The notes beneath the pieces are model-generated. The model did not search any database. It saw only the letters and a list, made by a program, of their open reading frames with translations, and was not told the DNA's origin. The position numbers were made by a program, and so were the translations under genes. A DNA stretch of 64,000 nt from Lachnospiraceae bacterium Marseille-Q4251 (GTDB taxonomy: Bacteria; Bacillota; Clostridia; Lachnospirales; Lachnospiraceae): assembly GCA_018223435.1 (NCBI GenBank), contig JAGTTO010000001.1, positions 2,604,001 to 2,668,000 of the forward strand, in the 5' to 3' direction. Of this stretch, positions 8,736-49,058 are shown piece by piece (the stretch's first letter is position 1; each line of letters starts with the position of its first letter).

Positions 8736-10094
8736 ATGAATGATATTTATTTACTTAATTATTCGGTCAGGGGAATAAAGACCTTAGATCAGTTGGTTTC
8801 GCTATCCTTTTATAAAAAGACAATTTCCAGAGATATGGATACGCAGGAATATAACATCAAAGGAATTTATGGTATGAATGGTTCCGGTAAGTCAGGAATT
8901 ATTACCTCCGTTGCGATTCTCAAAAATCTTTTGATTGATCCGGACTACTTAAATAATCCGATCACTCAGAAAAATCTGGATGGAATTATAAATAAGAAAA
9001 CAAAAGAACTGTTTATGGAAGCTGATTATCTGGTTGACTTGAAAAAAGATTTGTTTTGTTTTCGATATTGTGTGACTTTAGCAAAGGATGTATCTGGAAA
9101 ATATGTAATTTCACAGGAATCGTTGGCTGTTCGGAAAGCCACATCGAAAAGTGATGAGCTGGGAATGATTTTTAAGGTAATTGCCGGTAAAGTGGACTTT
9201 CTTTATGGAGAGAAAAAAGAGGATTCCTTTTCTACTGCTGTCATAAATAGAACGATGAATTTATTGTCGACGACTTCCATGTGTGCGTTACTTTGTGGAA
9301 AGTTTTTATATGAAAACAGGAAGAAAATTCAGGAAAACCAGATTGTTTTTGTTAATACCATCAGTAACCTTTATATTTTGGGACACAAGTTGCATATTTA
9401 TCTGGATCAGTCTGATGATCACAGAGAATTTGCAGCGATAAATTCAATGGAAAGTTATGAAAACAAATATGTTTCCGTACTTAAAAGTTATTTGAGAATG
9501 GATAACGATATCCTTAGTGTAATATCCGTTACGAGGAACCTTGTTTTAAAAGAAAAATACGCGCAATTTGAAAAAACGATCCATCGCTTATATGAGTTTC
9601 TCCATATTTTCAAATCGGATTTACAGGCTATAGAAATCGACAGAAAAGAAAATCAGGACTTTTTTGTCTGTGATCTGGTTATGGTCTATGATTCTTATAA
9701 GATTCATGCAGAATATGAAAGCACAGGTATTAAGAAATTAGTCCGCCTGTTTGCCTATTTAAACGAAATGGTTCGCGGTGGGATCGTGTTTATTGATGAG
9801 TTCGACTCGAACCTTCATGACGTTTATCTCTGTGCCTTACTGGAATATCTGATGGAATATGGAAAAGGACAGCTGTGTTTTACGACTCACAATGTAGGCC
9901 CCATGGATGTCTTAAAACAGCGAAAGAAATCCATCGATTTTTTGTCGGAGGATCATAAAATTTATCCGTGGACAAAGAGCGGTAATTATTCACCTTCGAG
10001 ACTCTACCGAAATGGCATGATTGAAGGTTCGCCGTTTAACGTGGATTCTATTGACTTTATCAGCGTATTTGGTTCAGGTGAGGAGGATGAATAA
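8736..10094 (+). CDS. AAA15/OLD-like ATPase, probable defence protein
   Basis: This 452-residue protein has Walker A GMNGSGKS at about residues 46-53 and Walker B FIDEFD at about 352-357. A TTHN sensor-like stretch (CFTTHNVG) follows. This layout, an ABC-type ATPase split by a long helical middle region, matches AAA15/RloA/OLD-type proteins found in abortive-infection systems. The ATG at 8736 is chosen because GGGGG at 8723-8727 sits eight bases upstream. The gene is much richer in A+T than its neighbours. The next gene overlaps by one base (TAATG), as in two-gene defence operons, but that partner is broken. The defence role is inferred from family and context. Confidence 0.7.
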   Translation: MNDIYLLNYSVRGIKTLDQLVSLSFYKKTISRDMDTQEYNIKGIYGMNGSGKSGIITSVAILKNLLIDPDYLNNPITQKNLDGIINKKTKELFMEADYLVDLKKDLFCFRYCVTLAKDVSGKYVISQESLAVRKATSKSDELGMIFKVIAGKVDFLYGEKKEDSFSTAVINRTMNLLSTTSMCALLCGKFLYENRKKIQENQIVFVNTISNLYILGHKLHIYLDQSDDHREFAAINSMESYENKYVSVLKSYLRMDNDILSVISVTRNLVLKEKYAQFEKTIHRLYEFLHIFKSDLQAIEIDRKENQDFFVCDLVMVYDSYKIHAEYESTGIKKLVRLFAYLNEMVRGGIVFIDEFDSNLHDVYLCALLEYLMEYGKGQLCFTTHNVGPMDVLKQRKKSIDFLSEDHKIYPWTKSGNYSPSRLYRNGMIEGSPFNVDSIDFISVFGSGEEDE

Positions 10095-17654: not shown

Positions 17655-20123
17655 ATGAGAAAAATTCACTTGATCTGCAATGCCCATCTGGACCCGGTAT
17701 GGCTTTGGAGATGGCAGGAGGGCTGTACGGAGGCACTGTCTACTTTCCGGGTGGCGGAAGGCTTTACCGATGAGTTTCCGGGCTTTGCATTTAACCATAA
17801 TGAAGCGATTCTGTATCAGTGGGTAAAAGAAAATGAATCGGATCTGTTTGAACGAATTCAGCAGAAGGTAAAGGAAGGAAAATGGCATATCATGGGAGGC
17901 TGGTACCTTCAGCCCGACTGTAATATGCCCTCCGGCGAATCCATGATCCGCAATATGGCAGAAGGAAGAAAGTTCTTTCTGGAAGAATTTGGCGTGCAGC
18001 CGCATACGGCCATCAATTTTGATTCCTTCGGCCATTCCCGCGGTCTGGTGCAGATTTTAAATCAGGCAGGCTATGATTCTTATGTGGTATGCAGACCGGC
18101 AAAGGACAATTTTGACTTCCCGGAGCAGAACTATTTATGGAAAGGCTTTAATGGATCGGAGGTCATCGTTCACCGCTCGGATGAAAACTACAATTCCGTT
18201 TACGGCCATGCGGCAGAGGAACTGAATAAATTCCTGGAAGAGACGAAAGAAGAGCCGGTTTCTCTTTTCCTCTGGGGTGTGGGCGATCACGGAGGCGGCC
18301 CGTCCAGGGATGATCTGAAGGATCTGACAGCGCTGATTGAGGAAAAGAAAGAGGACTATGTGATCCTGCATTCCGATACGGAAACCTTTTTTAAGGAGCT
18401 AAAGGAAGCTGCACCAAAGCTTCCGGTTGTGGAGCGGAGTCTCAATCCGGTGGCGGAAGGCTGCTATACCTCTCAGATCCGCATAAAACAGAAACACAGA
18501 CTTCTGGAAAACGAGCTCTATTCTTCCGAGAAAATGGCCAGTGCGGCAGCCCTTTTACAGGGAAAGAATTATCCGAAACAGGCTTTTGAGGAAGCGGAAA
18601 AAGCCCTGCTCTTTGCAGAGTTTCACGATGCGCTTCCGGGTTCAGGCACCCAGCTGGTAGAGGAAGATACTTTACGCCTGCTGGATCATGGATTGGAAAT
18701 TCTTTCAAGAGAAAAACTGAAAGCGGCAATTGCGCTGACGGCCGGAGAAGAGAAAATCCTGGACGGAAGCTCCTGCGCCTTTATCTATAATCCTCATCCC
18801 TATCCGATCAAGGGACAGTTTGCCTTTGAGGTGGGTCTGCCAAAACAGAACTGGGAAAATGTATTTTACTATCCGAAGGCCTACTGCAATGGGAAAGAAG
18901 TACCGACCCAGGGTGAGATGGAGTCCAGCCATTTCTGCATAGACTGGAGAAAGAAAGTCGTGATCGAGGTGGAGCTTCAGCCTTCCTGCATCAACCGCGT
19001 GGATGTGTTCTTTGAAGCCATTGAGAAGAGACCGGTTTTTGAGCCGATCATAGCAAAGAAAAACTTTGTGTTTGAGAACGAGAGAATGCGCGTGGTGATC
19101 AATACTTCCACAGGACTGATGGATTCCTATCAGGTAGATGGAAAAGAATACTTAAAACCGGGAAGCTTTCAGCTGACAGCCATGGACGGAACCTATAATT
19201 CCTGGGGCCTCTGGACCGATGAAACTCATTGCAGGAGAAAATTTGCACTTCTGACGCCTCATGAGGGCAGTGAATTTTCCGGCCTGATGGATCAGGTAGT
19301 ACCCTCTGTCCGGGTGATTGAGGACGGAGCAGTCCGGACAGTGGTGGAAGTTTTGTCTGGCTGGCACAATAGTAAGGCTTATCAGCGCTATGTGCTGCCG
19401 AAAGTGGGAACCTCCTTTGAAGTGGAAGTCGGCGTATACTGGAACGAAAATGATACCGTTCTGAAAATGGAGATCCCGACACTGCTGGAAAAAGGCCAGT
19501 ATCAGGGCCAGGTGATGTTCGGTCATGATACCCTCCGGCAGAATGGAGCGGAAGTGGTTGCACAGAAATGGAATGCATTGACAGAGGACGGCCGGATGTT
19601 CAGCGTACTGAACAAAGGCAGCCATGGAAGCAGTGAAAAGGACGGCACCATTGGTCTGACACTTTTACATTCTGCCGGTTATTCCGCAGCAGATGGTGAT
19701 TTTGAACGGACTCTGAGGGAGAAACGCCATACGGTACGAATGGAACAGGGAGAGCGTCTTTTCTCATTCAAAGTAGAAGCCGGAAAGACGGAAGAACTGG
19801 AAGCAGTTCTGGATCAGAAGGCACAGGTCTATAACGAGGAACCCTATGCATTTGCCTTCAGCGCGCCGGGAACCGGCAAAAAAGCAGGTTCGTTTATGAC
19901 CATCGATAATCCGGCGATTCTCGTTTCTGCCTGCAAGATGGCGGAAAGCGGCGAGGGCTACACGATTCGTGTGTTTGAAACGGCGAATAAAGAAAGCGAA
20001 GGAATGCTTTCCATTCCTGCGCTTGGGATAACGAAAAAGATTTCTCTGAAGCCTTTTGAACTGAAAACCTTACACTTGGATGAAAAGGCAGGGGTGATCG
20101 CGGATGCGGATATTTTCGACTAA
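17655..20123 (+). CDS. GH38 alpha-mannosidase (822 residues)
   Basis: This retaining, metal-dependent alpha-mannosidase has the zinc-binding motif HLDPVWLWRW (His11, Asp13) right at the N-terminus. The nucleophile Asp123 lies in AINFDSFGHS, and a further conserved segment is LQPDCNMPSGES near residue 85. C-terminal beta domains follow (residues about 390-820). No signal peptide is present, so it works in the cytoplasm and removes alpha-mannosyl branches from imported oligosaccharides. AAAGGAACGGAG precedes the ATG. The next gene starts inside its last 20 bases, so translation is coupled. Confidence 0.92.
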   Translation: MRKIHLICNAHLDPVWLWRWQEGCTEALSTFRVAEGFTDEFPGFAFNHNEAILYQWVKENESDLFERIQQKVKEGKWHIMGGWYLQPDCNMPSGESMIRNMAEGRKFFLEEFGVQPHTAINFDSFGHSRGLVQILNQAGYDSYVVCRPAKDNFDFPEQNYLWKGFNGSEVIVHRSDENYNSVYGHAAEELNKFLEETKEEPVSLFLWGVGDHGGGPSRDDLKDLTALIEEKKEDYVILHSDTETFFKELKEAAPKLPVVERSLNPVAEGCYTSQIRIKQKHRLLENELYSSEKMASAAALLQGKNYPKQAFEEAEKALLFAEFHDALPGSGTQLVEEDTLRLLDHGLEILSREKLKAAIALTAGEEKILDGSSCAFIYNPHPYPIKGQFAFEVGLPKQNWENVFYYPKAYCNGKEVPTQGEMESSHFCIDWRKKVVIEVELQPSCINRVDVFFEAIEKRPVFEPIIAKKNFVFENERMRVVINTSTGLMDSYQVDGKEYLKPGSFQLTAMDGTYNSWGLWTDETHCRRKFALLTPHEGSEFSGLMDQVVPSVRVIEDGAVRTVVEVLSGWHNSKAYQRYVLPKVGTSFEVEVGVYWNENDTVLKMEIPTLLEKGQYQGQVMFGHDTLRQNGAEVVAQKWNALTEDGRMFSVLNKGSHGSSEKDGTIGLTLLHSAGYSAADGDFERTLREKRHTVRMEQGERLFSFKVEAGKTEELEAVLDQKAQVYNEEPYAFAFSAPGTGKKAGSFMTIDNPAILVSACKMAESGEGYTIRVFETANKESEGMLSIPALGITKKISLKPFELKTLHLDEKAGVIADADIFD

Positions 20124-37782: not shown

Positions 37783-39129
37783 TTGAAAAAATCATATGAA
37801 ATGGATATGTGCAACGGCCCGCTATTAGGAAAGATCCTTGTATTTACGTTTCCGCTGATGCTTTCCGGTGTGCTGCAGCTGCTTTTCAATGCGGCGGATA
37901 TTGTGGTGGTGGGGCGGTTTTCCGGAGCTCATGCACTGGCGGCGGTGGGTTCTACCGGTGCACTGATCAATCTTCTGATCAATGTATTCATGGGCCTTTC
38001 TATCGGCACCAACGTGCTGGCAGCCCAGGGGTACGGAGCCAAAAATGCGGAAGATGTCAGCGATACCGTACATACGTCCATTCTTTTAAGCCTAGTGAGC
38101 GGCGCAATTCTCATCGTGGTAGGGATTCTGTTTTCCAGGCCCCTGCTGGAACTTATGGCTACCCCGGAGGAAGTCCTGGGACAGGCGGCTCTTTATATGA
38201 AGATTTACTTCATCGGAATGCCGGCCATGATGGCCTACAACTTTGGCGCGGCTATTTTAAGAGCCATCGGAGATACCAAGCGCCCACTTTATTATCTTTT
38301 GATTTCCGGTGTGGTGAACGTGATTCTGAACCTGATCTTTGTGATCATTTTCAAGATGGGAGTGGCAGGAGTGGCGACAGCCACTGTGATTTCCCAGGTT
38401 ATTTCCGCGGGCATGGTCTTAAAATGCCTGATGGGCCTGGATGGCATGTGCCGCCTGGATCTCCACAAGCTGGCCATCCACAAGGATAAACTCCTGAACA
38501 TTGCCAGAATCGGTCTTCCCGCAGGCATGCAGGGAGCCATTTTCTCCATCTCCAACGTGCTGATCCAGTCCTCGGTAAACTCCTTCGGAGCCATCGCCAT
38601 GGCCGGAAATACAGCCGCCGGAAACCTGGAGGGCTTTGTATATACGTCCATGAACTCTGTATACCAGACAAACTTGAGCTTCACCAGCCAGAACATGGGA
38701 GCCGGAAACCGCCAGCGCATGAAAAAGATCTTAGGTATCTGCCTGATTCTTGTCAGTGTGGTTGGCCTGGTCCTCGGAAACGGCTTCGTTTTCTTCGGCC
38801 AGCAGCTTCTCGGCATTTACTCCTCCGACCCGGAGGTCATCCAGTACGGCCTCAACCGAATGCATCTCATCTGCGCCCCCTATTTTCTCTGCGGCCTCAT
38901 GGATGTCATGGTGGGAAGCATGAGAGGAATGGGCTACTCCTTCCTCCCCATGATCGTTTCCCTGATCGGAGCCTGCGGCCTCCGTGTTGTCTGGATTTTC
39001 ACAGTATTTCAGTGGCATCGCTCTCTGTTTACGCTGTATCTGTCCTATCCGATCACCTGGACGATCACGGCGTTGGCACATATGGCTTGCTGGTATGTGG
39101 TGATGTATAAGAAACAACCAAATAAGTAA
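37783..39129 (+). CDS. MATE-family efflux transporter
   Basis: This 448-residue protein has twelve predicted membrane helices and the duplicated MATE fold. Its N-terminus, DMCNGPLLGKILVFTFPLMLSGVLQLLFNAADIVVVG (read in pieces), is typical of the clostridial branch, and the second half repeats the pattern from about residue 235 (IGLPAGMQGAIFSISNVLIQ). It starts with TTG at 37783, a few bases after GGAGGAATGAG; an ATG at 37801 is an alternative. It would export drugs or metabolites with Na+ or H+; the substrate is unknown. Confidence 0.88.
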   Translation: MKKSYEMDMCNGPLLGKILVFTFPLMLSGVLQLLFNAADIVVVGRFSGAHALAAVGSTGALINLLINVFMGLSIGTNVLAAQGYGAKNAEDVSDTVHTSILLSLVSGAILIVVGILFSRPLLELMATPEEVLGQAALYMKIYFIGMPAMMAYNFGAAILRAIGDTKRPLYYLLISGVVNVILNLIFVIIFKMGVAGVATATVISQVISAGMVLKCLMGLDGMCRLDLHKLAIHKDKLLNIARIGLPAGMQGAIFSISNVLIQSSVNSFGAIAMAGNTAAGNLEGFVYTSMNSVYQTNLSFTSQNMGAGNRQRMKKILGICLILVSVVGLVLGNGFVFFGQQLLGIYSSDPEVIQYGLNRMHLICAPYFLCGLMDVMVGSMRGMGYSFLPMIVSLIGACGLRVVWIFTVFQWHRSLFTLYLSYPITWTITALAHMACWYVVMYKKQPNK

Positions 39130-39135
39130 TTGACC

Positions 39136-39172
39136 CGAGGGGAGATGTTTGCGTGGAAAACATTGCCCCTCG
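39136..39172 (+). terminator. Terminator-like hairpin after the MATE gene
   Basis: CGAGGGG (39136-39142) pairs with CCCCTCG (39166-39172), with ATGTTT/AAACAT pairing inside; only a short T-stretch follows. Confidence 0.6.
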
Positions 39173-39224
39173 CTTTATAAAAAATAGGAAATATTTTAGA
39201 GGATGCTGCTGGTAAAAATACAAA

Positions 39225-39253
39225 TTGGCAGGAAATGAAAAGTATGCTATATT
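39225..39253 (+). promoter_or_regulatory. Promoter of the CRISPR-repeat-like small RNA
   Basis: TTGGCA (39225-39230), a 17-base spacer and the extended -10 TGC-TATATT (TATATT at 39248-39253). The predicted start point is near 39260, directly before the RNA's 5' stem. Confidence 0.75.
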
Positions 39254-39259
39254 ACTTAT

Positions 39260-39386
39260 GTGTAACCAATAGAGTTTGGGTCGTATTACATTGGGAATGC
39301 GTGAGTAGAAATAGTTTTATTGGCTATTAGGGTTACAAGAAGAAGAGCTATATGCAGAGATGAGTTTTTGCATATAGCTCTTTTTG
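39260..39386 (+). ncRNA. CreR-like small RNA with one degenerate type I-C repeat and a guide against the cas promoter region
   Basis: The RNA contains a repeat-like unit at 39280-39312. Its stem CGTATT/AATGCG replaces the ACGCCC/GGGCGT stem of the array repeats, and its last 12 bases, GTGAGTAGAAAT, are identical to the array repeat end. The guide starts at 39313 and runs about 31 bases to a perfect 13-14-pair terminator stem (39344-39356 with 39369-39381) followed by T residues. The guide matches the minus strand at 39415-39399, upstream of cas3, at positions 1-5, 7-11 and 13-17. A 5' stem (39261-39272 with 39324-39337) could mask the guide. Seen: pairing, promoter, terminator, match. Inferred: processing by Cas5c and repression of cas genes through Cascade, as known for CreR RNAs of other type I systems. 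Confidence 0.8.
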
Positions 39387-39398
39387 TACGAATGAAAG

Positions 39399-39415
39399 TA
39401 ATATCCAATTAAACT
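39399..39415 (-). promoter_or_regulatory. Candidate protospacer for the CreR-like RNA (cas operon operator)
   Basis: On the minus strand the 17 bases read AGTTTAATTGGATATTA against a guide AGTTTTATTGGCTATTA; the mismatches are at guide positions 6 and 12 only. The three bases on the PAM side are CTT, with TTC two bases farther out. The PAM edge lies 9 bases from the -35 box of the cas3 promoter. Confidence 0.7.
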
Positions 39416-39426
39416 AAGAAAATATA

Positions 39427-39455
39427 TTGACGAGATATTAAAAAGGTGATACAGT
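39427..39455 (+). promoter_or_regulatory. Probable promoter of the cas operon
   Basis: TTGACG (39427-39432), a 17-base spacer, TACAGT (39450-39455). Transcription would start near 39462, only about ten bases before cas3. Confidence 0.5.
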
Positions 39456-39470
39456 AAGCCTAAGAGAGGA

Positions 39471-41678
39471 GTGAGAAAAATAGAAGAAAAAGAAAATTAT
39501 ATTGCACATAAAAACAAAGAAAATGGAAAAATTCAGACAATAAAAGAACACAGCGAAAATGCTGCCAGGTTATGTATGGAAATGTCTATACCAGAACTTA
39601 AAGAAATCAATCGAATAATTGGATTGTTACATGATATTGGAAAATATCAAAACTCTTTTCAGAGAAGAATGAAGGATGAAAAAATTCGGGTTGAGCATTC
39701 CATATGTGGTGCACAGATTGCAAAGAAAATATATGAGAAACCATTCCTGGCGCTTGCGTATTTAATGGAATATTGCATTGCTGGCCACCATTCCGGGATT
39801 CCTGACGGAGGAGTTCAAAATGGCAGACCGGATTCACTGAATACAAGGCTTCAAAGAGAGATGGAGGATTACAGTGCTTACCAAGAGGAACTGGAAATTC
39901 CACAGATTGATCTGCAGAAAGTAATAAATTTTTTCGCGCAGGATATCAAAAATGATATAGATTTTTTGATTGATAAATTCGCTTTTCTGACAAGATATTG
40001 TTTTTCCTGTCTGGTAGATGCAGATTCCGAAGACACTGCAAGGTTTTGCGGAGATGGAACTTTACCAGAGGATCTGAAGACAAATTTTCAGAGCTGCCTT
40101 GAAAAAGTAAATCGAAAACTGCAATCTTTTCAAGCTGAGACTGAACTTCAGAAAGCCAGAGCACTTTTACAGAAGCAGGTATTTGATAAAACAGGTGAAA
40201 AAGCAGAGATTTATCTTATGAACATGCCGACAGGAAGCGGCAAAACATTATGTAGTGTGAAATTTGCTCTGGAAAAAGCAATTGCCGAAAAGAAGAAGAG
40301 GATCATTTATGTAATTTCATTTTTGAGTATCATTGATCAGTCAGTCGAGATGTTTGAAAATCTCTTTGGGAAGGATGCACAGATTCTGCGTCATCAGTCT
40401 ACCTTTTCCTATGACGATGCAGAAGATTTCAGTGAAGATTATCGTATTTCAGCAAAGCATGCGACAGAGAACTGGAGTGCAGATTTTATTGTGACAACTA
40501 TGGTTCAGTTCCTCGGCTCCTTGTATTCCAATCGGCGGGGAAAACTGCGAAAGGTCCACAATATGGCAGATGCGGTTCTCATTTTTGATGAAGCACATTT
40601 GATGCCTGTAGAATATTTACAGCCCTGTCTCCAGGGAATCGCATTTCTCACAAGGTACTTGAACAGCAGTGCAGTATTTCTGACGGCAACAATGCCGGAC
40701 TTTCCAAGTTTGATTCAGACCTATGCTTTGGAAAACAGCAAGATAGTTAATCTGGTAACAGATACATCGGATTTTGAAAAGTTTAAGAAATGCAAGTTTA
40801 GCTATATTGGAAAGATGGAACAGGAAACGCTGTTAAGTAAAAGCAGACAATATGCTTCCAGTTTGATTGTTGTTAATAAGAAACGAACAGCAAGGGAATT
40901 ATACAGGCAGTGTACAGGTAAAAAGTATCATTTGTCTACTTATCTGGCGGCATATGACAGAAAACGGATTTTAGATGAAATTCGAAAGGAACTAAAGCAA
41001 TTAGAGGTGGAATATCCTAATCTTGAAGGAGTTCCGGAAGATCGGCGTATTACCGTGATATCTACTTCGCTAATTGAAGCAGGAGTTGATCTTGACATGG
41101 CTGTTGTATTTCGACAGCTTACTGGTCTGGACAGCATTTTACAGGCTGGCGGACGTTGCAACAGAGAAGGAAAAAGACAGGGAGCAACGACATTTGTTTT
41201 TGAACTGTCAGAGGATCAAAAAGAAGATGAGGGAATGAATAAAACCAGAGGACTGCTTAAAAAATATGCAGATGTTTCTTCGCAGGAATGTATACGGGAA
41301 TATTATAACTGTATGTATAAGCTGAGAGAGACAGAAATTGAAGAACATGCGATTCATAATGATTACAAAGATATTCGGCAGATAGGTTTTAAAACCTATG
41401 CTGAAAAATTTCATTTGATTGAATCTAATACTCAATCGGTTGTAGTTGGCTGCAATGAGGAAGCGAAACGTAGAATAGAAGAGCTGCAGAAAACCCAAAT
41501 AGGCAATCCGCGAAAATTCCAAAATTATGCCTGTTCTGTAACACAGGCTGAATTAGATGATCTGGTAAGACAGCATGCGGTGAAGGACTATGGGACTGGA
41601 ATTTTCTGCCTGATAAGTGATGGTTATTATGACGAAAATCTTGGGATTCTTTTTGAAGGAAAAGATTACATCATATGA
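39471..41678 (+). CDS. cas3: Cas3 helicase-nuclease (type I-C)
   Basis: This 735-residue protein has an N-terminal HD nuclease domain (His27; LLHDIGK with His54-Asp55; GHHSG near residue 105). An SF2 helicase follows (Walker A NMPTGSGKT near residue 253, DEAH at 373-376, TSLIEAGVDLD near residue 527, QAGGRCNREGK). It unwinds and degrades DNA bound by Cascade. GTG at 39471 is the only usual start codon in frame, but it overlaps the AGGAG site (39467-39471). A rare ATA start at 39480 would have normal spacing, so the start is uncertain. It is the first gene of an AT-rich seven-gene operon. Confidence 0.93.
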   Translation: MRKIEEKENYIAHKNKENGKIQTIKEHSENAARLCMEMSIPELKEINRIIGLLHDIGKYQNSFQRRMKDEKIRVEHSICGAQIAKKIYEKPFLALAYLMEYCIAGHHSGIPDGGVQNGRPDSLNTRLQREMEDYSAYQEELEIPQIDLQKVINFFAQDIKNDIDFLIDKFAFLTRYCFSCLVDADSEDTARFCGDGTLPEDLKTNFQSCLEKVNRKLQSFQAETELQKARALLQKQVFDKTGEKAEIYLMNMPTGSGKTLCSVKFALEKAIAEKKKRIIYVISFLSIIDQSVEMFENLFGKDAQILRHQSTFSYDDAEDFSEDYRISAKHATENWSADFIVTTMVQFLGSLYSNRRGKLRKVHNMADAVLIFDEAHLMPVEYLQPCLQGIAFLTRYLNSSAVFLTATMPDFPSLIQTYALENSKIVNLVTDTSDFEKFKKCKFSYIGKMEQETLLSKSRQYASSLIVVNKKRTARELYRQCTGKKYHLSTYLAAYDRKRILDEIRKELKQLEVEYPNLEGVPEDRRITVISTSLIEAGVDLDMAVVFRQLTGLDSILQAGGRCNREGKRQGATTFVFELSEDQKEDEGMNKTRGLLKKYADVSSQECIREYYNCMYKLRETEIEEHAIHNDYKDIRQIGFKTYAEKFHLIESNTQSVVVGCNEEAKRRIEELQKTQIGNPRKFQNYACSVTQAELDDLVRQHAVKDYGTGIFCLISDGYYDENLGILFEGKDYII

Positions 41679-41694: not shown

Positions 41695-42423
41695 ATGGCG
41701 TATGGATTTAAAATAATGGTAGAAGGAGATTATGCCTGTTTTACAAGGCCGGAGCTGAAGGTGGAACGTGTCAGTTATGACGTTCCGCCTCCGGGCGCAC
41801 TGGAAGGAATGCTGAAAAGCTGCTACTGGAAGCCGTCTATAAAGTATACGATTGATAAAATTATCGTGTTCAATAAGATTGATTTCATGAATGTCAGGAG
41901 AAACGAAGTAAAAGAGAAGGTATTGTTGAGTGCGGTAAAGAGTCAGATGAATGGAAAAGGAGGAGATCCCTGTATCTATACTTCTGAGAGCAGGAGTCAG
42001 AGAGCTTCTATGATTCTGAAAAATGTGAAATATGGGATCGAATTTCATTTTGAACTGACGAATTTGAAAAATGAAAGGGAGGAAGATGCAGAGAAGAAAC
42101 ATTACAATATCATAAAAAGGCGACTGGAAAAAGGACAATGGTTCCGTGTTCCCTGCCTGGGTTGTAGTGAATTCCCCGTAAAGAAAATAGAACTTGTAGA
42201 AGATTTTAATGAGAATCTTATCGACAAAGACATTTTAGATATGAAAGATGTGGATCTTGGCTACATGAGCTATAAAGTGCAGTTTGCAGACGGAGGAAAG
42301 CCAATAAATGATGATTGGGAGAATCCGGAGTTTTCTGACCGGGCCAATACGCTTTACTATCGTCCACATATGATAAATGGAGTGATTGATGTGAGAAAAT
42401 ACAGGGAGGGGCTGCGATGCTGA
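41695..42423 (+). CDS. cas5c: Cas5c (Cas5d) crRNA-processing Cascade subunit
   Basis: This 242-residue RAMP protein takes the place of Cas6 in type I-C systems. It cuts pre-crRNA at the base of the repeat hairpin and stays on the 5' handle. The N-terminus has the family pattern MVEGDYACFTRPELKVERVSYDVPPPGALEGMLKSCYWKP (read in pieces, residues 8-45), and RPHMINGVIDVRKYREGL closes the protein. AAGAAGGTGAGAGG precedes the ATG. Its end overlaps cas8c by seven bases. It is the likely processor of both the array transcript and the CreR-like RNA. Confidence 0.93.
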   Translation: MAYGFKIMVEGDYACFTRPELKVERVSYDVPPPGALEGMLKSCYWKPSIKYTIDKIIVFNKIDFMNVRRNEVKEKVLLSAVKSQMNGKGGDPCIYTSESRSQRASMILKNVKYGIEFHFELTNLKNEREEDAEKKHYNIIKRRLEKGQWFRVPCLGCSEFPVKKIELVEDFNENLIDKDILDMKDVDLGYMSYKVQFADGGKPINDDWENPEFSDRANTLYYRPHMINGVIDVRKYREGLRC

Positions 42424-44234
42424 TAAAAGCATTAAGCGATTACTATGATATTCTGGCGTCAAAAGGGGAAATAACACCAGAGGGTTTCTCAAAGGTAAAA
42501 ATACATTATAAAGTAGCCTTAACTGAAGATGGAAAAATAGATGAAATTATCGACTTCAGAAAGAAGGATACTATAAAAACGGGAAAAGACAAGATTAAAG
42601 AGGTAATTGCTCCTCAGGAGAAATTATTGCCTGCGAGAACAGAAAAAACTGGAATTGAAGCGAATATTGCAGAGCACAGGCCGCTTTACTTATTCGGTTT
42701 AAATCTGGATAAAGATCAGCTGACACCGGAAGATAAAACGGGAAAAGCAAAAAAATCCCATGAAGCTTTTGTAAAAACAAATTTGGAATTCACAGAAGGA
42801 ATGAGTTCGCCTCTCATTCAGGCATTTCGAAAATTTCTTGAGAGCTGGAAACCAGAGCAGGAGACACAGAATTCACAGTTATTAGTTCTGGGTAAGGAGT
42901 ATGCGAAATCCGGATTTGTATTTTGTCTGACAGGAAGTCCGGAAAAATTGTTGCACGAAGAACCGGAGTTTAAAGAAAAATGGCAGGAATACTGGATCAA
43001 AAAGCAAGATGAAAATTCAGAGGGGCCGACAGCGCAATGTGCTGTCAGTGGAGAAACAGCTGCGATTGCAAGAATACATAGTAAAATCAAAGGTGTTTAT
43101 GGTGGTCTGGCAACAGGAAGTGTGCTTGTAGGTTTTAATAATTCATCGGAAAGCTCCTATGGAAACGAGCAGGCGTATAACAGCAATATTTCTGAAAGTG
43201 TGATGAAGAAATATACGGAAGCTTTGAATTATCTTCTGAGCAGTGAGAAACATAAAATAATGCTGGATGATATGACGCTTGTATTCTGGGCAATGAATAC
43301 AGGTGAAAAGCAGGAAAATCTTATTATGGAAATGCTCTTTGGAGCATCTGATAAAATGAATACAGAACAGACAGATTTGATGTTGAAAGAGCTTATGGAA
43401 GATTCAGCAACAGGAAAGATTACCGCAAAAAGATTGGAAAATCTGGATTTGATTCAAGAAGATGTTGATTTTTATATGCTGGGATTAAAACCGAATTCTT
43501 CCAGATTGGCTTTGAAGTTTATCTATAGAAAGAGCTATGCGGATGTTTTATGGAATATTGTAAGATTTCAGAACGATCTGCAAATGACGAAAGAACCACA
43601 TGCGATTTCGCTGCAAAGGATAAAACACGAGCTGATATCACCTAAAGTCAAAAATGATAAAGTTAATCCTGCTTTGACGACAAAACTTCTGGAATCTGTT
43701 TTGTATGGACGAAAATATCCGACGACTTTGTTGGAAACAGTGCTGAGAAGGATCAGAACCGATGAAGGGAGTGAAAAAATCAATTCTGTCAGGATTGGGA
43801 TTATTAAGGCAGTTATAAACAGAAACAGTGAAAAGGAGGAATTGAAAATGGTAGTGGATTTAGAAAATGAAAATTCTGCATATTTATGTGGACGTATGTT
43901 TGCGGTTTTGGAAAAATTGCAGAAAGATTCAGTAACGTCTGGAAAATTGAATCGAACAATCAGGGATGGATATTTTGCCATGGCATCTACCAGACCGGCG
44001 TCGGTTTTTCCTAAATTGTTGAGATTGGCGCAGCATCATTTAAAGAAATTGGAAAAAGCGGAATATTCACTTTACTATGAAAAAATGTTGGAGGAGATCC
44101 ACAGTAAAATGAAAAATGAATATCCAGGAAGACTTCTGTTAAAAGAACAAGGTATGTTTATGGTTGGATACTATCAGCAGATGCAGGATTTATATCAGAA
44201 GAAAAATAAAGAAAATGAAAAAGGAGAAAATTGA
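42417..44234 (+). CDS. cas8c: Cas8c (Csd1) large Cascade subunit
   Basis: This 605-residue large subunit recognises the PAM and starts R-loop formation. Family features seen are the start ALSDYYDILASKGEITPEGFS, the Cys-Ala-Val stretch AQCAVSGETAAIARIHSKIKG near residue 205, LVGFNNSSESSYGNEQAYN near residue 238 and a helical C-terminal third. The gene is strongly AT-rich like the rest of the operon. It overlaps cas5c at its start and touches cas7c at its end. An internal start for a small subunit (Cas11c), known in other type I-C systems, would be expected near base 43848: AAAGGAGGAATTGAAAATG is present there, followed by VVDLENENSAYLC. Confidence 0.93.
   Translation: MLIKALSDYYDILASKGEITPEGFSKVKIHYKVALTEDGKIDEIIDFRKKDTIKTGKDKIKEVIAPQEKLLPARTEKTGIEANIAEHRPLYLFGLNLDKDQLTPEDKTGKAKKSHEAFVKTNLEFTEGMSSPLIQAFRKFLESWKPEQETQNSQLLVLGKEYAKSGFVFCLTGSPEKLLHEEPEFKEKWQEYWIKKQDENSEGPTAQCAVSGETAAIARIHSKIKGVYGGLATGSVLVGFNNSSESSYGNEQAYNSNISESVMKKYTEALNYLLSSEKHKIMLDDMTLVFWAMNTGEKQENLIMEMLFGASDKMNTEQTDLMLKELMEDSATGKITAKRLENLDLIQEDVDFYMLGLKPNSSRLALKFIYRKSYADVLWNIVRFQNDLQMTKEPHAISLQRIKHELISPKVKNDKVNPALTTKLLESVLYGRKYPTTLLETVLRRIRTDEGSEKINSVRIGIIKAVINRNSEKEELKMVVDLENENSAYLCGRMFAVLEKLQKDSVTSGKLNRTIRDGYFAMASTRPASVFPKLLRLAQHHLKKLEKAEYSLYYEKMLEEIHSKMKNEYPGRLLLKEQGMFMVGYYQQMQDLYQKKNKENEKGEN
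43848..44234 (+). CDS. Candidate internal small subunit Cas11c within cas8c
   Basis: Inside cas8c an AAAAGGAGGAATTGAAA sequence ends shortly before an in-frame ATG at 43848. This would give a 128-residue protein identical to the Cas8c C-terminus (starting MVVDLENENSAYLCGRMFAVLEKLQKDS, in pieces). In other type I-C systems the small subunit is made by such internal initiation (established for that subtype). Here the perfect ribosome site and correct size are seen; expression is inferred. Confidence 0.7.
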   Translation: MVVDLENENSAYLCGRMFAVLEKLQKDSVTSGKLNRTIRDGYFAMASTRPASVFPKLLRLAQHHLKKLEKAEYSLYYEKMLEEIHSKMKNEYPGRLLLKEQGMFMVGYYQQMQDLYQKKNKENEKGEN

Positions 44235-44236
44235 TT

Positions 44237-45106
44237 ATGGCTATCAATAATAGATATGATTTTGTGATGTTATTTGATGTGGAAAATGGAAATCCAAACG
44301 GAGACCCGGACGCAGGCAATGCTCCCCGCGTGGATGCAGAATCAGGTTATGGATATGTTACCGATGTCTGCCTTAAAAGGAAAATTCGGAATTATGTAGA
44401 ACTGGTAAAAGAAGGTGAGGAAGGATATAATATCCTGATCAAACCAGATCGTTCTTTGAATGCAAAATTTACGGAAGCATATAAAGAACTGGGACTTACA
44501 TCTACGAAAAAAGACAGTAGAGAAAAAAAGGCTGATGATATGGTAAAGGCCCGGGATTATATGTGTAAAAACTATTTTGATGTCAGAACTTTCGGTGCAG
44601 TTATGTCTACAGGTGATAATCCCTGTGGAATTGTAAGGGGACCTGTACAGATTAACTTTGCAAGAAGTATTTCACCGGTTGAACCTCAGGATATTGCGAT
44701 TACCAGGCAGGCAAGGACAACAGACGAAAGAACGGAGACCGGCGATACGGAAATAGGAAGAAAAAGTTTTATCCCTTATGCATTATATCGTGCGGAGGGC
44801 TACATATCTGCAGCTTTGGCAAACAAAGTAACTGATTTGTCAGAAGAAGATGTAGAGCTTTTATGGACGGCGATTATGAATATGTTTGAGAATGATCACA
44901 GTGCAGCACGCGGAAAAATGTGTATGCGGAAACTGTTTGTGTTTAAGCATGATAACGTACTCGGGGTATGCCCTTCACATCTCCTGTTTGATAAGATTCA
45001 GGTGAAAGAATGCGAAGATGTGAATGTGATCCGTTCCATAAAGGATTATGACATTACAGTTGATCGGGAAATGCCGGAAGGAGTGGAACTGATAGAAAAA
45101 TTATGA
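44237..45106 (+). CDS. cas7c: Cas7c (Csd2) Cascade backbone subunit
   Basis: This 289-residue protein polymerises along the crRNA guide. It shows the Cas7 signature RYDFVMLFDVENGNPNGDPD at its start, the VRTFGAVMS loop near residue 114 and GPVQINFARSISPVEPQDIAITRQ near residue 136. The ATG at 44237 is chosen over the in-frame TTG at 44231 because of the spacing to AAAGGAG. Cas7 thumbs insert after every sixth guide base, which flips that base out. That is relevant to the mismatch pattern of the CreR-like guide. It overlaps cas4 by four bases. Confidence 0.94.
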   Translation: MAINNRYDFVMLFDVENGNPNGDPDAGNAPRVDAESGYGYVTDVCLKRKIRNYVELVKEGEEGYNILIKPDRSLNAKFTEAYKELGLTSTKKDSREKKADDMVKARDYMCKNYFDVRTFGAVMSTGDNPCGIVRGPVQINFARSISPVEPQDIAITRQARTTDERTETGDTEIGRKSFIPYALYRAEGYISAALANKVTDLSEEDVELLWTAIMNMFENDHSAARGKMCMRKLFVFKHDNVLGVCPSHLLFDKIQVKECEDVNVIRSIKDYDITVDREMPEGVELIEKL

Positions 45107-45780
45107 TTTCTGAGGAGATTGCTATAAGATCCATTCAGCATTATATGTATTGTCCTCATCGATGGGGACTGCTGGAAATTGACAAAGCCTGGGCAGAAAA
45201 TTTTTTTGTGACAAAAGCAAATTTGCTGCATGAGCGGGTTCATGATCCGGAGAAAAATTATACTGCAAGAGGGAAAAAAGTGTTTACAGCCGTCCCCGTC
45301 TACAATGACAGAGAAGAATATAATCTGTACGGAGTAACAGACTGTCTGGAACTGACGGAAAGCAAAGAAGGTGTTTCTGTTGGGGATGACGGTAGAAAAT
45401 ATCAGATTTGCATTGTGGAATATAAACCCACGAAACCGAAAAATGAGGAGATCAGGCCGGATGACCAAATGCAGATATTTGCACAGAAGCTTTGTGTGGA
45501 TTTTGCGTTTGGAGGAGACTGTGATGCAGTAATTTATTATGCTGATGTAAGGAAAAGATACAATGTACCTGTGAAGGAAAATTTTGAGGCATATGATAAG
45601 AAGCTGAAAGAACTTTTGTATGAAATGAGAACGTACCTTGAAAATGGTCAGATACCGGAAATACGGAAAGGTCAGAAATGCAGCGGTTGTTCTATGAAAG
45701 ATCTTTGTATGCCGAAAACATCTCCATCATGGAATGTCAAAAAAGAGCTGAAAAAAATTTTAGCGGATGAAGGCGAATGA
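45103..45780 (+). CDS. cas4: Cas4 exonuclease (adaptation)
   Basis: This 225-residue RecB-type nuclease has an iron-sulfur cluster and works with Cas1-Cas2 to choose and trim PAM-containing prespacers. Conserved features are IQHYMYCPHRWGL near residue 11, the nuclease motif QICIVEYKPTKPKNEE near residue 104, DDQMQIFAQKLCV near residue 120 and the cysteine set CSGCSMKDLCMP near residue 190. It overlaps cas7c by ATGA. Its stop lies in a four-base overlap with a possible early cas1 start. Confidence 0.93.
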   Translation: MISEEIAIRSIQHYMYCPHRWGLLEIDKAWAENFFVTKANLLHERVHDPEKNYTARGKKVFTAVPVYNDREEYNLYGVTDCLELTESKEGVSVGDDGRKYQICIVEYKPTKPKNEEIRPDDQMQIFAQKLCVDFAFGGDCDAVIYYADVRKRYNVPVKENFEAYDKKLKELLYEMRTYLENGQIPEIRKGQKCSGCSMKDLCMPKTSPSWNVKKELKKILADEGE

Positions 45781-45797
45781 TCTTTTTGGGGGAGGAT

Positions 45798-46820
45798 ATG
45801 AGAAAGCTTTTAAATACGATTTATGTAACAAATGAAGCAGCTTACTTAACGCTGGATGGTGAAAATATGGTGTGTAAAATCGAAGGAAAAGAAAAGCTGA
45901 GGATTCCTTTTGAGAATATTGAAAATGTAGTCTGTTTTAGCTACCTGGGATGTTCACCGGCGCTTATGGGAAAATGCGTCGAAAAAACAATACCCATTAA
46001 CTTTATTTCACCTCAGGGAAAGTTCTGGGCAAAAGTGTGCGGAGAAACAAAAGGAAATGTCTTTTTAAGAGTAGCACAAATAGAACAGTTTCGGGAAAAT
46101 GGATTGACTTTGGCACAGAATACATTGGCTGCAAAATTTAGTAATACACGTCAGCTGATTCGAAGGACACTTCATGATAATGCAGAATTAAGAGAAGATG
46201 CGGAAATAAAAAAGGCTATAACTGTTCTGGAAGAAGGAATGAACAAGATATTCCAAGCCTTAACGATAGAAGAAGCGATGGGAATAGAAGGGTATTGTGC
46301 GGAAAGTTATTTTGGTATTTTTGACAAATTGATTACCAATGAAAAAGTTCCATTTCATTTTGAACTGAGAACAAAACGTCCTCCGCTGGATCCGATCAAC
46401 GCGGTGCTCTCGTTTGTGTATACACTGGCTACAAATGAGTTTGCAGCAGCCCTGGAAACGGTGGGGTTAGACAGCTATATAGGATATTGCCATGCGCTCA
46501 GAAGCGGAAGAAAATCTCTGGCTTGTGATATGGTAGAAGAAACGAGATGCATTGTGGAACGTTTTGTCATTACGCTGTTAAATCTTCAGATTTTAGGAGA
46601 GAAAGATTTTGAAAAACAGATCTCCGGAGCCGTATGGCTAAATGAAGAAGGCAGAAAAAAAGTCCTGGCACGCTGGCAGGAGAAGAAGAGAACGGATATG
46701 ATGCACCCGTATCTGAAACAGAAAATTCCGCTGGGCTTGCTTCCTTATGTTCAAAGTAACCTTTTGGCTAAATATGTGCGTGGGGATATTGCAGAATATC
46801 CAGTGTTTCTTTTGAAGTAG
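45798..46820 (+). CDS. cas1: Cas1 integrase (type I-C)
   Basis: This 340-residue protein inserts new spacers together with Cas2. It begins MRKLLNTIYVTNEAAYLTLDGENMV, the standard type I-C start; the ATG at 45798 follows GGGGGAGGAT, whereas the earlier ATG at 45777 overlaps cas4. Active-site stretches are EGYCAESYFGIFDKLI (Glu) near residue 160 and SYIGYCHALRSGRKSLACDMVEE (His, Asp; read in pieces) near residue 230. The sequence appears intact, so adaptation is probably possible. Confidence 0.94.
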   Translation: MRKLLNTIYVTNEAAYLTLDGENMVCKIEGKEKLRIPFENIENVVCFSYLGCSPALMGKCVEKTIPINFISPQGKFWAKVCGETKGNVFLRVAQIEQFRENGLTLAQNTLAAKFSNTRQLIRRTLHDNAELREDAEIKKAITVLEEGMNKIFQALTIEEAMGIEGYCAESYFGIFDKLITNEKVPFHFELRTKRPPLDPINAVLSFVYTLATNEFAAALETVGLDSYIGYCHALRSGRKSLACDMVEETRCIVERFVITLLNLQILGEKDFEKQISGAVWLNEEGRKKVLARWQEKKRTDMMHPYLKQKIPLGLLPYVQSNLLAKYVRGDIAEYPVFLLK

Positions 46821-47314: not shown

Positions 47315-48919
47315 GTCACGCCCCTCGCGGGCGTGTGAGTAGAAATTATTTAATACGTCTGTCTGGTAATAATATCCGCGTCACGCCCCTCGCGGGCGTG
47401 TGAGTAGAAATTATATTCCGATGGACGGCTTCCAGACCGGTGCGAGTCACGCCCCTCGCGGGCGTGTGAGTAGAAATGAAATCATACGAATGTCAGTAAG
47501 ATATTTGTCTGAGTCACGCCCCTCGCGGGCGTGTGAGTAGAAATAATCGCTAAAATTGTAGAATCAGTCTATACTGCCGTCACGCCCCTCGCGGGCGTGT
47601 GAGTAGAAATGTTCCAATTACCGTTTTGAATGGTGTGAAAACGGTCACGCCCCTCGCGGGCGTGTGAGTAGAAATGTCCGTCCCGGAAATATTGTTCAGC
47701 AAAATATGGGTCACGCCCCTCGCGGGCGTGTGAGTAGAAATTTTCAGTTTCGCACCTGGCCCGCAGAGCTTCCAGGGTCACGCCCCTCGCGGGCGTGTGA
47801 GTAGAAATATCCTCTCTTTCTGTTCTGGTGGAACAGCTATTACGGTCACGCCCCTCGCGGGCGTGTGAGTAGAAATTAATAGTTCCATATTGGAATGTAA
47901 ATTTAGAACGTCACGCCCCTCGCGGGCGTGTGAGTAGAAATATTGATGATGGCCTCATGACGGAAAACATCATCGTCACGCCCCTCGCGGGCGTGTGAGT
48001 AGAAATTTCCGGTTGTTTCATCTGTTCCGGTTCGTGTCCCGTCACGCCCCTCGCGGGCGTGTGAGTAGAAATGCATCAGTAGCACCTGTGTTATCAGCTC
48101 CGTGCAGGTCACGCCCCTCGCGGGCGTGTGAGTAGAAATTTGTGCATTTCCATGTAGCACCCGCTGACACGAAGTCACGCCCCTCGCGGGCGTGTGAGTA
48201 GAAATTGCAAGTGCATGGCAATCTTCCTTTGTGAATCCGCGTCACGCCCCTCGCGGGCGTGTGAGTAGAAATTTGTGCGCTTGCTGTACATATTACTGAT
48301 ATTATCCGTCACGCCCCTCGCGGGCGTGTGAGTAGAAATGTTAATGCTTCTAACAAGTTTCAAGTTACCTTCGTCACGCCCCTCGCGGGCGTGTGAGTAG
48401 AAATCCTTTTCCGCTGTTCCGCCACTGACCAATTCCATGAGTCACGCCCCTCGCGGGCGTGTGAGTAGAAATTTGCTGCAAACCTCAGAGAAGCAATCGT
48501 TCCCCGTCACGCCCCTCGCGGGCGTGTGAGTAGAAATGCAAAATACGGCGGTTGTGGGATTTCAGGACATGTCACGCCCCTCGCGGGCCTGTGAGTAGAA
48601 ATGCCATGCCATCATCAGTGAACACGTTGCCGTCGTGTCCGGTCACGCCCCCTGTGGGCCTGTGAGTAGAAATTACGGATGCGGTCTGCACCGCCAGGAA
48701 GTACTGGTCACGCCCCAAGCAGGCGTGTGAGTAGAAATTTCAGAGTCTCCGGAAGATTATCAACAGACTCTTGCCATGTCCCACATGGGCGTAAGAGTAG
48801 AAATGATATGGTGGATAATATGACCGGTAAGATACAGGGCGTGAGAGTAGAAATGACTGGGGAATTTCTGTTATGGATTACAGAGAAGTCACGCCTTTTA
48901 TAGGCGTGTGAGTAGAAAT
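47315..48919 (+). CRISPR. Type I-C CRISPR array, 25 repeats (22 full, 3 at the far end altered)
   Basis: Repeats are 32 bases: first 47315-47346, then at 47380, 47446, 47513, 47579, 47644, 47710, 47777 and so on. The stem is ACGCCC/GGGCGT and the 3' tag is GTGAGTAGAAAT. Most spacers are 33-36 bases; a few near the far end are 39. Repeats from 48571 on collect changes (GGGCCTGTG at 48571; loop changes at 48642 and 48707), then become shortened at 48778-48804 and 48837-48854. The final unit, 48888-48919, has a changed loop but a paired ACGCC/GGCGT stem. Decay away from the leader shows that the cas2 side is the growing end. Spacer targets cannot be named without a search. Confidence 0.97.
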
Positions 48920-49058
48920 GAGAATGATGTAAAAGAATAGGGATTTCAAGCAATCTCATATTGTTCAGGATTTCCTGAATAGAAAACAATATAAAATTTT
49001 ATAGTAACTCCCAAATTCCCCGCATACACTGTAAAAACACCACTATCGGGGGATTTCC

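What the first reader, a model, noticed from the sequence alone, without database searches (positions are those of the whole stretch)
39225..39470. CreR-like autorepressor RNA gene upstream of a type I-C cas operon
Between the MATE gene and cas3 is a complete small RNA gene: consensus promoter (TTGGCA, 17 bases, extended TATATT), one degenerate CRISPR repeat (39280-39312), a guide, and a strong terminator. The last 12 repeat bases, GTGAGTAGAAAT, are identical to the array repeats. The stem bases differ completely from those of the array but still form six pairs (CGTATT/AATGCG, one G-U), which shows selection for structure. The guide points at DNA just upstream of the cas3 promoter. CreR RNAs that guide Cascade to cas promoters are known for some other type I systems. 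I do not recall one described for I-C with this layout. It would keep cas expression low and release it when Cascade is blocked, for example by anti-CRISPR proteins.
Basis: partly seen in the sequence, partly recalled or inferred. Interest (0 to 1): 0.95.

Follow-up and report, generated by a model that had tools for sequence, protein, structure and literature searches.

The report
CRISPR system's own off-switch RNA
Next to a bacterial CRISPR immune operon lies a predicted small-RNA gene with one worn-down CRISPR repeat and a guide that matches the DNA just in front of that operon's predicted promoter, so the RNA likely sends the immune complex there to hold its own production down without cutting.

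Summary
The 341-bp gap before a type I-C cas operon holds a predicted promoter, a degenerate repeat ending in the exact array handle GTGAGTAGAAAT, a guide and a terminator-like hairpin. Guide positions 1-17 match the opposite strand, with the CTT PAM ending 8 nt before the predicted cas3 -35 box. Only positions 6 and 12 mismatch; Cascade flips such bases out. None of 3000 shuffles reached that score. In 130 distinct cas3 loci, 38 of 63 lone handles flanking cas3 have such a guide, against 1 of 1549 array spacers and 0 of 157 lone handles elsewhere. In 42 distinct guides, matching is at chance at 6, 12 and 18-30, none used for selection. The PAM follows the handle class (17 of 17, 25 of 25). 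Of 117 loci with enough flank, 40 carry the element and 77 do not. It is a CreR-like cas autorepressor, a known kind shown in I-B, I-E and V-A. My searches found no I-C demonstration, but the main prediction paper was not readable here. Transcription, Cascade binding and repression are untested.

The parts
39137..39171 (+). hairpin after the upstream MATE gene, possibly its terminator (weak T-run)
   Evidence: by eye on the sequence; no scan listed it
39225..39253 (+). predicted extended sigma-70-type promoter of the small RNA (TTGGCA, 17 nt, TATATT)
   Evidence: consensus scan; not significant alone
39260..39385 (+). predicted small RNA (precursor), about 126 nt
   Evidence: inferred from promoter and terminator; fold
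39280..39312 (+). degenerate CRISPR repeat (pseudo-repeat) with stem CGTATT/AATGCG
39301..39312 (+). repeat 3' end GTGAGTAGAAAT, identical to array repeats; predicted 5' handle from 39302 after Cas5c cleavage
   Evidence: cleavage site inferred
39313..39344 (+). guide (spacer-like), up to 32 nt; positions 1-17 (39313-39329) match the target except 6 and 12
39345..39385 (+). terminator-like hairpin and T-run, in the place of a second repeat (stem from 39340 in the fold)
39399..39415 (-). target (partial protospacer) of the guide
39416..39418 (-). PAM CTT (minus strand)
39427..39455 (+). predicted cas promoter TTGACG-17-TACAGT, extended -10
   Evidence: 8 nt from PAM
39471..41678 (+). cas3 (type I-C operon)
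   Evidence: NCBIfam
41695..46820 (+). cas5c, cas8c, cas7c, cas4, cas1
   Evidence: NCBIfam (cas2 not looked for)
47315..48950 (+). CRISPR array, repeat GTCACGCCCCTCGCGGGCGTGTGAGTAGAAAT

Best explanation
[quoted passage not shown] Shown: a pseudo-repeat with the array's exact handle, a guide whose positions 1-17 match the DNA just upstream of the predicted cas3 -35 box next to a CTT PAM, with mismatches only at positions 6 and 12, and a terminator-like hairpin after the guide where a second repeat would be. Also shown: the same arrangement, with its own guide and target, in 40 of 117 distinct type I-C-like loci. Inferred: the RNA is transcribed, Cas5c cuts at the base of the pseudo-repeat stem, Cas5c-Cas8c-Cas7c assemble on it and sit on the promoter. 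Because pairing stops at position 17, they would bind without recruiting Cas3, so the operon would be turned down, not cut. Array crRNAs or anti-CRISPR proteins that take up Cascade would then release the operon.
For: Window: handle in 0 of 3000 shuffles, guide-target score 15 of 15 against at most 13 in 3000 shuffles; the degenerate guide pattern occurs only at guide and target in 64 kb. Comparison on 130 distinct cas3 loci: at least 14 of 15 core matches plus PAM for 38 of 63 lone handles in cas3 flanks (44 of 63 at 13 or better; exact handles 36 of 41 at 13 or better), against 0 of 157 lone handles elsewhere (1 at 13) and 1 of 1549 array spacers (5 at 13). Perfect scores 22 of 63 when positions 6 and 12 are ignored, against 1, 1, 1, 1 and 2 of 63 in the five other phases. 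In 42 distinct guides, positions not used for selection match at chance: 22 of 84 at 6 and 12, 141 of 546 at 18-30 (sums). The PAM base at -3, free in the scan, is C in 17 of 17 GTGAGT handles and T in 25 of 25 GTGG/GCGG-type handles. Terminator-like hairpin after the guide in 36 of 42, no shuffle control. Targets lie within 12 nt of a promoter-like site in 22 of 42, against 18% of random positions. In L032, L034, L125 and L126, whose elements look alike, all 1-3 core guide differences per pair are mirrored in the target. Next gene is Cas5c in 10 of 10 loci tested. In E. coli type I-E a target mismatched at 19-32 bound Cascade robustly with no interference and no priming (PMC5904413, section 14); every sixth base is flipped out (PMC5904413 and PMC11127173, passages).
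Against: No expression or binding data. 77 of 117 distinct loci lack a detectable element, including 22 of the first 24 loci ranked by Cas3 at the 13-of-15 cut. L018/L109 (Blautia) keep a similar element with a changed handle and no target. L005/L083 reach only 12 of 15. L036 mirrors only 1 of 2 core guide differences to L034, and L032 lies in the other orientation. The window hairpin alone is not better than shuffles. The PAM could not be checked from spacers: no phage match, and four spacer seeds in IMG/VR gave no true protospacer. 20 of 42 targets are not within 12 nt of a consensus promoter. Of 4000 random guide positions in these regions, 0.25% also reach 14 of 15 (run before the loci were turned). 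The 13-of-15 cut makes the core match rate itself circular; only the unselected positions, the phase control and the array-spacer control are free of that. The 'elsewhere' control holds only 7 exact handles, the rest having one mismatch.
Confidence: 0.87

Rival explanations
1. It is an antitoxin RNA (CreA) of a CreTA-type addiction module: the guide would silence a small RNA or peptide toxin, not cas genes.
For: CreA has the same anatomy, including the one-repeat-plus-terminator form in Haloarcula hispanica (PMC8501985, passages). In L055 the target lies next to the element and far from cas3.
Against: In the window the PAM ends 8 nt from the predicted cas promoter, and no ORF of 20 aa or more lies on the + strand wholly between target and cas3. 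In relatives the targets lie upstream of cas3 (18) or downstream of it (22).
Confidence: 0.06
2. It is a relic: a decayed repeat with a guide that no longer acts.
For: Stem diverged from the array; a similar element in Blautia (L018/L109) has a changed handle and no target.
Against: Handle exact and 15 of 15 core matches with mismatches only at flipped-out positions; predicted promoter and terminator in place. Mirrored guide-target changes among the L032/L034/L125/L126 elements.
Confidence: 0.04
3. It is an RNA anti-CRISPR (Racr) or phage-derived solitary repeat that poisons Cascade assembly.
For: Solitary repeat downstream of a predicted promoter; a type I-C Racr has been tested experimentally (PMC10651486, passages).
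Against: It sits between two host genes inside the cas locus, the same arrangement recurs in 40 of 117 loci, and the guide matches the cas promoter region in phase with a PAM, which a Racr would not need. Five IMG/VR contigs with the guide pattern lack the handle.
Confidence: 0.02

Closest known systems
CreR, cas-regulating RNAs of types I-B, I-E and V-A (reviews PMC13131331, passages; PMC12737573, passages and section 9; primary paper not read)
   Same: Ectopic crRNA-like gene, partial complementarity of the guide to the cas promoter region, presumed Cascade-mediated autorepression.
   Different: Here the subtype is I-C, where Cas5 and not Cas6 processes repeats (PMC11127173, passage); one pseudo-repeat closed by a terminator-like hairpin; two target placements in relatives (next to the -35, or shortly after the -10).
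CRISPR-derived crRNA-like elements / mini-arrays near cas genes (Shmakov et al. 2023, NAR; seen only as a reference entry, content recalled)
   Same: Standalone repeats with guides partly matching cas promoters, mostly in type I; the window element may fall in that set.
   Different: Whether I-C elements, this lineage, the PAM-handle pairing or the every-sixth-base rule are reported there could not be checked (not held).
CreA of CreTA modules (PMC8501985, PMC9458426, passages)
   Same: Degenerate pseudo-repeat, guide with PAM, one-repeat form with terminator.
   Different: CreA silences a toxin; no toxin ORF was found here and the target is at the predicted cas promoter.
Racr, RNA anti-CRISPR (PMC10651486, passages)
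   Same: Solitary repeat with promoter; a type I-C case is known.
   Different: Carried by mobile elements and inhibitory through mimicry; here a cas locus and a promoter-matching guide.
Natural single-guide RNA that autoregulates Cas9 (Workman 2021, seen only as a reference entry, content recalled)
   Same: Natural guide with partial match to the cas promoter.
   Different: Cas9 and tracrRNA, unrelated parts.

Membership tests
CreR | crRNA-like gene outside the array with the 3' end of the repeat conserved | tested here: met
   GTGAGTAGAAAT exact at 39301-39312, outside the array
CreR | guide partly complementary to the promoter region of the cognate cas operon, beside a PAM | tested here: met
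   15 of 15 core positions, CTT PAM ending 8 nt from the predicted -35; that CTT is a working PAM of this system is inferred from relatives
CreR | match limited to the PAM-proximal part, compatible with binding but not cutting | tested here: met
   Window match ends at 17; in 42 guides positions 18-30 match 141 of 546
CreR | expressed as a small RNA | not testable with these tools
   only predicted promoter and terminator
CreR | Cascade-dependent repression of cas genes | not testable with these tools
   no expression data
CreTA (CreA) | a toxin gene or RNA under the targeted promoter | tested here: not met
   No + strand ORF of 20 aa or more wholly between target and cas3; a shorter RNA toxin is not excluded
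Racr | encoded on a phage, prophage or plasmid, away from cas genes | tested here: not met
   Between a MATE gene and cas3 of a I-C operon; the wider window was not searched for a mobile element
type I-C CRISPR-Cas (host system) | cas3, cas5c, cas8c, cas7c, cas4, cas1 | tested here: met

The most novel reading that the evidence does not exclude
Type I-C systems across several bacterial phyla run on an old, lineage-kept autorepressor RNA. Its guide and promoter target co-evolve under the base-flip rule of Cascade, its PAM is tied to the handle clade, and its guide stops at position 17 so that Cascade parks and does not cut. The window element is one such switch; in at least one relative (L004) the job has passed to a spacer inside the immune array itself.
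Probability: 0.5. Interest if true: 0.7.

Novelty: new member of a known kind. Interest (0 to 1): 0.55.

Why it matters
If true, type I-C, a compact subtype in which Cas5 replaces Cas6, controls its own dose with an RNA guide, as shown for I-B, I-E and V-A. The paired guide-target sites give a ready reading of the I-C seed, PAM and tolerated mismatches in nature. They also give a test of whether anti-CRISPR attack on I-C raises cas expression.

Tried and rejected
PAM from spacers: the whole window array against 50,697 phage records gave no match at E 0.01. Four 18-mers, each from one window spacer, gave 0, 1, 2 and 4 contigs in IMG/VR. Two of these seven contigs carried a partial match to one spacer, 27 and 29 of 36, with CGG before it; the other five fell below 24 matches. 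Rejected as protospacers, so the PAM rests on the element set alone.

Guide sequestration by the RNA's 5' leader (GTAACC...GGTTAC pairing seen): not a shared feature (mean z -0.54 over 42; window -1.02; strong, below -4, only in L034, L125 and L126). Rejected as general.

A phage carrying the same guide: five IMG/VR contigs match the degenerate guide pattern but have no repeat handle; taken as chance.

Rfam: three matches with E up to 1 at 39000-39600, none near its gathering score.

Searches used genome-search loci on the minus strand without turning them, so 'upstream of cas3' was wrong for those rows (L095, L099, L104, L105, L132 and others). (139 loci) still held some genomes twice; its figures were 40 of 68, 0 of 158 and 1 of 1549 at 14 of 15, and repeats the count on 130 distinct cas3 loci (L140 left out). 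The pairwise total (415 of 445) is inflated by the selection on matching and is not used.

Lone handles in cas flanks without a target at 13 of 15: 22 of 68, listed (19 of 63); several have one mismatch and may be chance.

Full report
WHAT IS THERE. The window holds a type I-C operon, cas3, cas5c, cas8c, cas7c, cas4, cas1 (NCBIfam), followed by an array of 32-nt repeats GTCACGCCCCTCGCGGGCGTGTGAGTAGAAAT. The best loci by Cas3 are mostly Lachnospiraceae and other Clostridia by their titles; no whole genome is held for the window. The gap between the MATE gene (ends 39129) and cas3 (39471) holds, in order: a hairpin that may end the MATE transcript (by eye), a promoter-like site (39225-39253), a degenerate repeat (39280-39312), a guide (39313-39344), a terminator-like hairpin with T-run (39345-39385), the target with PAM (39399-39418, minus strand) and the predicted cas promoter (39427-39455).

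IS IT CHANCE? The exact handle GTGAGTAGAAAT occurs in 0 of 3000 dinucleotide shuffles of the gap. The guide-target score of 15 of 15 (positions 1-17 without 6 and 12; T at -2 and C or T at -1 required) compares with a maximum of 13 in 3000 shuffles. The pattern with N at 6 and 12 hits the 64-kb window only at guide and target, 0 in 100 shuffles. The promoter alone is not significant (1.9 expected by shuffle, 2 found), nor is the window's pseudo-repeat hairpin (z -0.36).

RELATIVES. An alignment of 15 Cas3 proteins brought 80 loci from genome contigs, the best 80 of 435 confirmed. Three draws of 397, 392 and 391 genomes had 28, 13 and 25 genomes with a match at the cut-offs set, some shared between draws. 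As handle I took any of 11 twelve-base I-C repeat ends with at most one mismatch. After collapsing near-identical cas3 genes (130 loci, L140 left out), 38 of 63 lone handles within 900 nt of cas3 are followed by a guide with at least 14 of 15 core matches in those flanks; 44 of 63 reach 13. The same holds for 0 of 157 lone handles elsewhere (1 at 13; only 7 of these handles are exact) and 1 of 1549 array spacers (5 at 13). With exact handles, 36 of 41 reach 13 and 30 reach 14. Perfect scores are 22 of 63 in the real phase and 1, 1, 1, 1 and 2 in the five other phases, although these have one position fewer to match (all). Of 117 loci with at least 500 nt on both sides, 40 carry the element at 13 or better (35 at 14 or better), 18 upstream of cas3 and 22 downstream of it, and 77 do not. 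Two of the 77 have a two-mismatch handle with a good target (L095, L107), and L005 reaches 12 of 15. The gene after cas3 is Cas5c in 10 of 10 loci tested, out of 17 listed; for the others the gene order was not tested.

SPREAD. By record titles and scores, elements occur outside Clostridia in Candidatus Gastranaerophilales (L051, 15), Halomonas (L062, 14), Kushneria (L079, 14), Falsochrobactrum (L072, 14), Burkholderiales (L058, 13), Desulfobulbaceae (L063, 15; L076, 13), Desulfuromonadales (L078, 15) and Enteroscipio (L055, 13, target not near cas3). Several of these are metagenome bins, so single titles may be wrong.

THE SIGNATURE. For 42 distinct guides, matches per position are 35-42 of 42 at the core positions, 15 at position 6, 7 at position 12, and 5-16 at each of positions 18-30. 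The core rate is shaped by the 13-of-15 cut, but positions 6, 12 and 18-30 played no part in selection; their pooled rates, 22 of 84 and 141 of 546, are at chance. In Class 1 complexes every sixth guide base is flipped out (PMC11127173, PMC5904413, passages). In E. coli type I-E, a target mismatched at 19-32 bound Cascade robustly but gave no interference and no primed adaptation (PMC5904413, section 14). A guide that pairs to 17 and then stops fits binding without cutting; applying this to I-C is inference.

PAM AND HANDLE. The base at -3 was free in the scan. It is C for 17 of 17 elements with a GTGAGT-type handle (CTT 10, CTC 7) and T for 25 of 25 with GGAT or GGGT at handle positions 3-6 (TTC 23, TTT 2). 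Two clades of I-C Cascade with different PAM taste would explain this; it is hard to get from chance AT-rich matches. An independent PAM from spacers could not be obtained.

GEOMETRY AND ANATOMY. Targets are within 12 nt of a promoter-like site in 22 of 42, against 18% of random positions nearby. Two placements recur: next to the -35 box (window 8 nt, L007 0, L017 4, L044 6, L061 5, L087 6, L090 7) and shortly after the -10 box (L034, L036, L126, L031). A terminator-like hairpin follows the guide in 36 of 42 by a script criterion without shuffle control. L034, L036, L125 and L126 have a second repeat after a short spacer at that place, and the script counts that hairpin too, so the terminator appears to stand in for the second repeat. 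One-repeat genes closed by a terminator are known for creA of Haloarcula hispanica (PMC8501985, passages). Among L032, L034, L125 and L126, which look alike, all core guide differences (1-3 per pair) are mirrored in the target; L036, also similar, mirrors only 1 of 2 against L034. L032 lies in the other orientation.

ARRAY-RESIDENT CASE. In L004 an internal array spacer (19368-19402) shows the same match pattern, with ACTT before it, to 9905-9921 just upstream of cas3; the repeats on both sides each carry variant bases. It is the only array spacer among 1549 that reaches 14 of 15 and remains a lead.

MECHANISM. Most likely (0.87): the RNA is made from its own promoter, cut by Cas5c, loaded with Cas8c and Cas7c, and parks Cascade at the cas promoter, giving negative feedback on Cascade dose. 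crRNA competition and anti-CRISPR release are taken from reviews of CreR in I-B, I-E and V-A (PMC13131331, passages; PMC12737573, passages and section 9). Transcription, processing, binding and repression were not tested.

NOVELTY. Open-library searches found CreR described for I-B, I-E and V-A and for 'Type I' in general, and no demonstration for I-C in the listings and passages that I saw. Shmakov et al. 2023, which as I recall predicts crRNA-like elements in many type I loci, is not held; I-C cases may be in it. I therefore call the window element a new member of a known kind. The phase-locked guide-target pairing and the PAM-handle split are, to my knowledge only, unreported for I-C.

Noticed in passing
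L004:19368-19402 and 9905-9921: An internal array spacer matches the cas3 upstream region with mismatches only at 6 and 12 (within 1-17) and a CTT PAM: a possible autorepressor guide kept inside the immune array.
   Followed up: partly
L018:1883 (same locus as L109), upstream of cas3: A Blautia relative has an element resembling that of L007, with a handle change (GTGAGTAGAGAT) and no target found; it may be decaying.
   Followed up: partly
L090:1278-1317: Two tandem copies of the target upstream of the cas promoter, both with ACTT before them, with 14 and 15 of 15 matches.
   Followed up: no
L055:9515-9590 (Enteroscipio rubneri): Element whose target lies beside it and about 490 nt from cas3 (13 of 15); it may control another gene or itself.
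   Followed up: no
window 39261-39337: The predicted leader can pair with sequence after the seed (GTAACC/GGTTAC); not a general feature in relatives.
   Followed up: yes
window 39461-39480: The GTG start assigned to cas3 directly abuts the ribosome-binding-like AGAGGAG, so the true start codon is uncertain.
   Followed up: no
window 48640-48929: Repeats at the far end of the array are degenerate and one unit is shortened, as expected for the old end.
   Followed up: no
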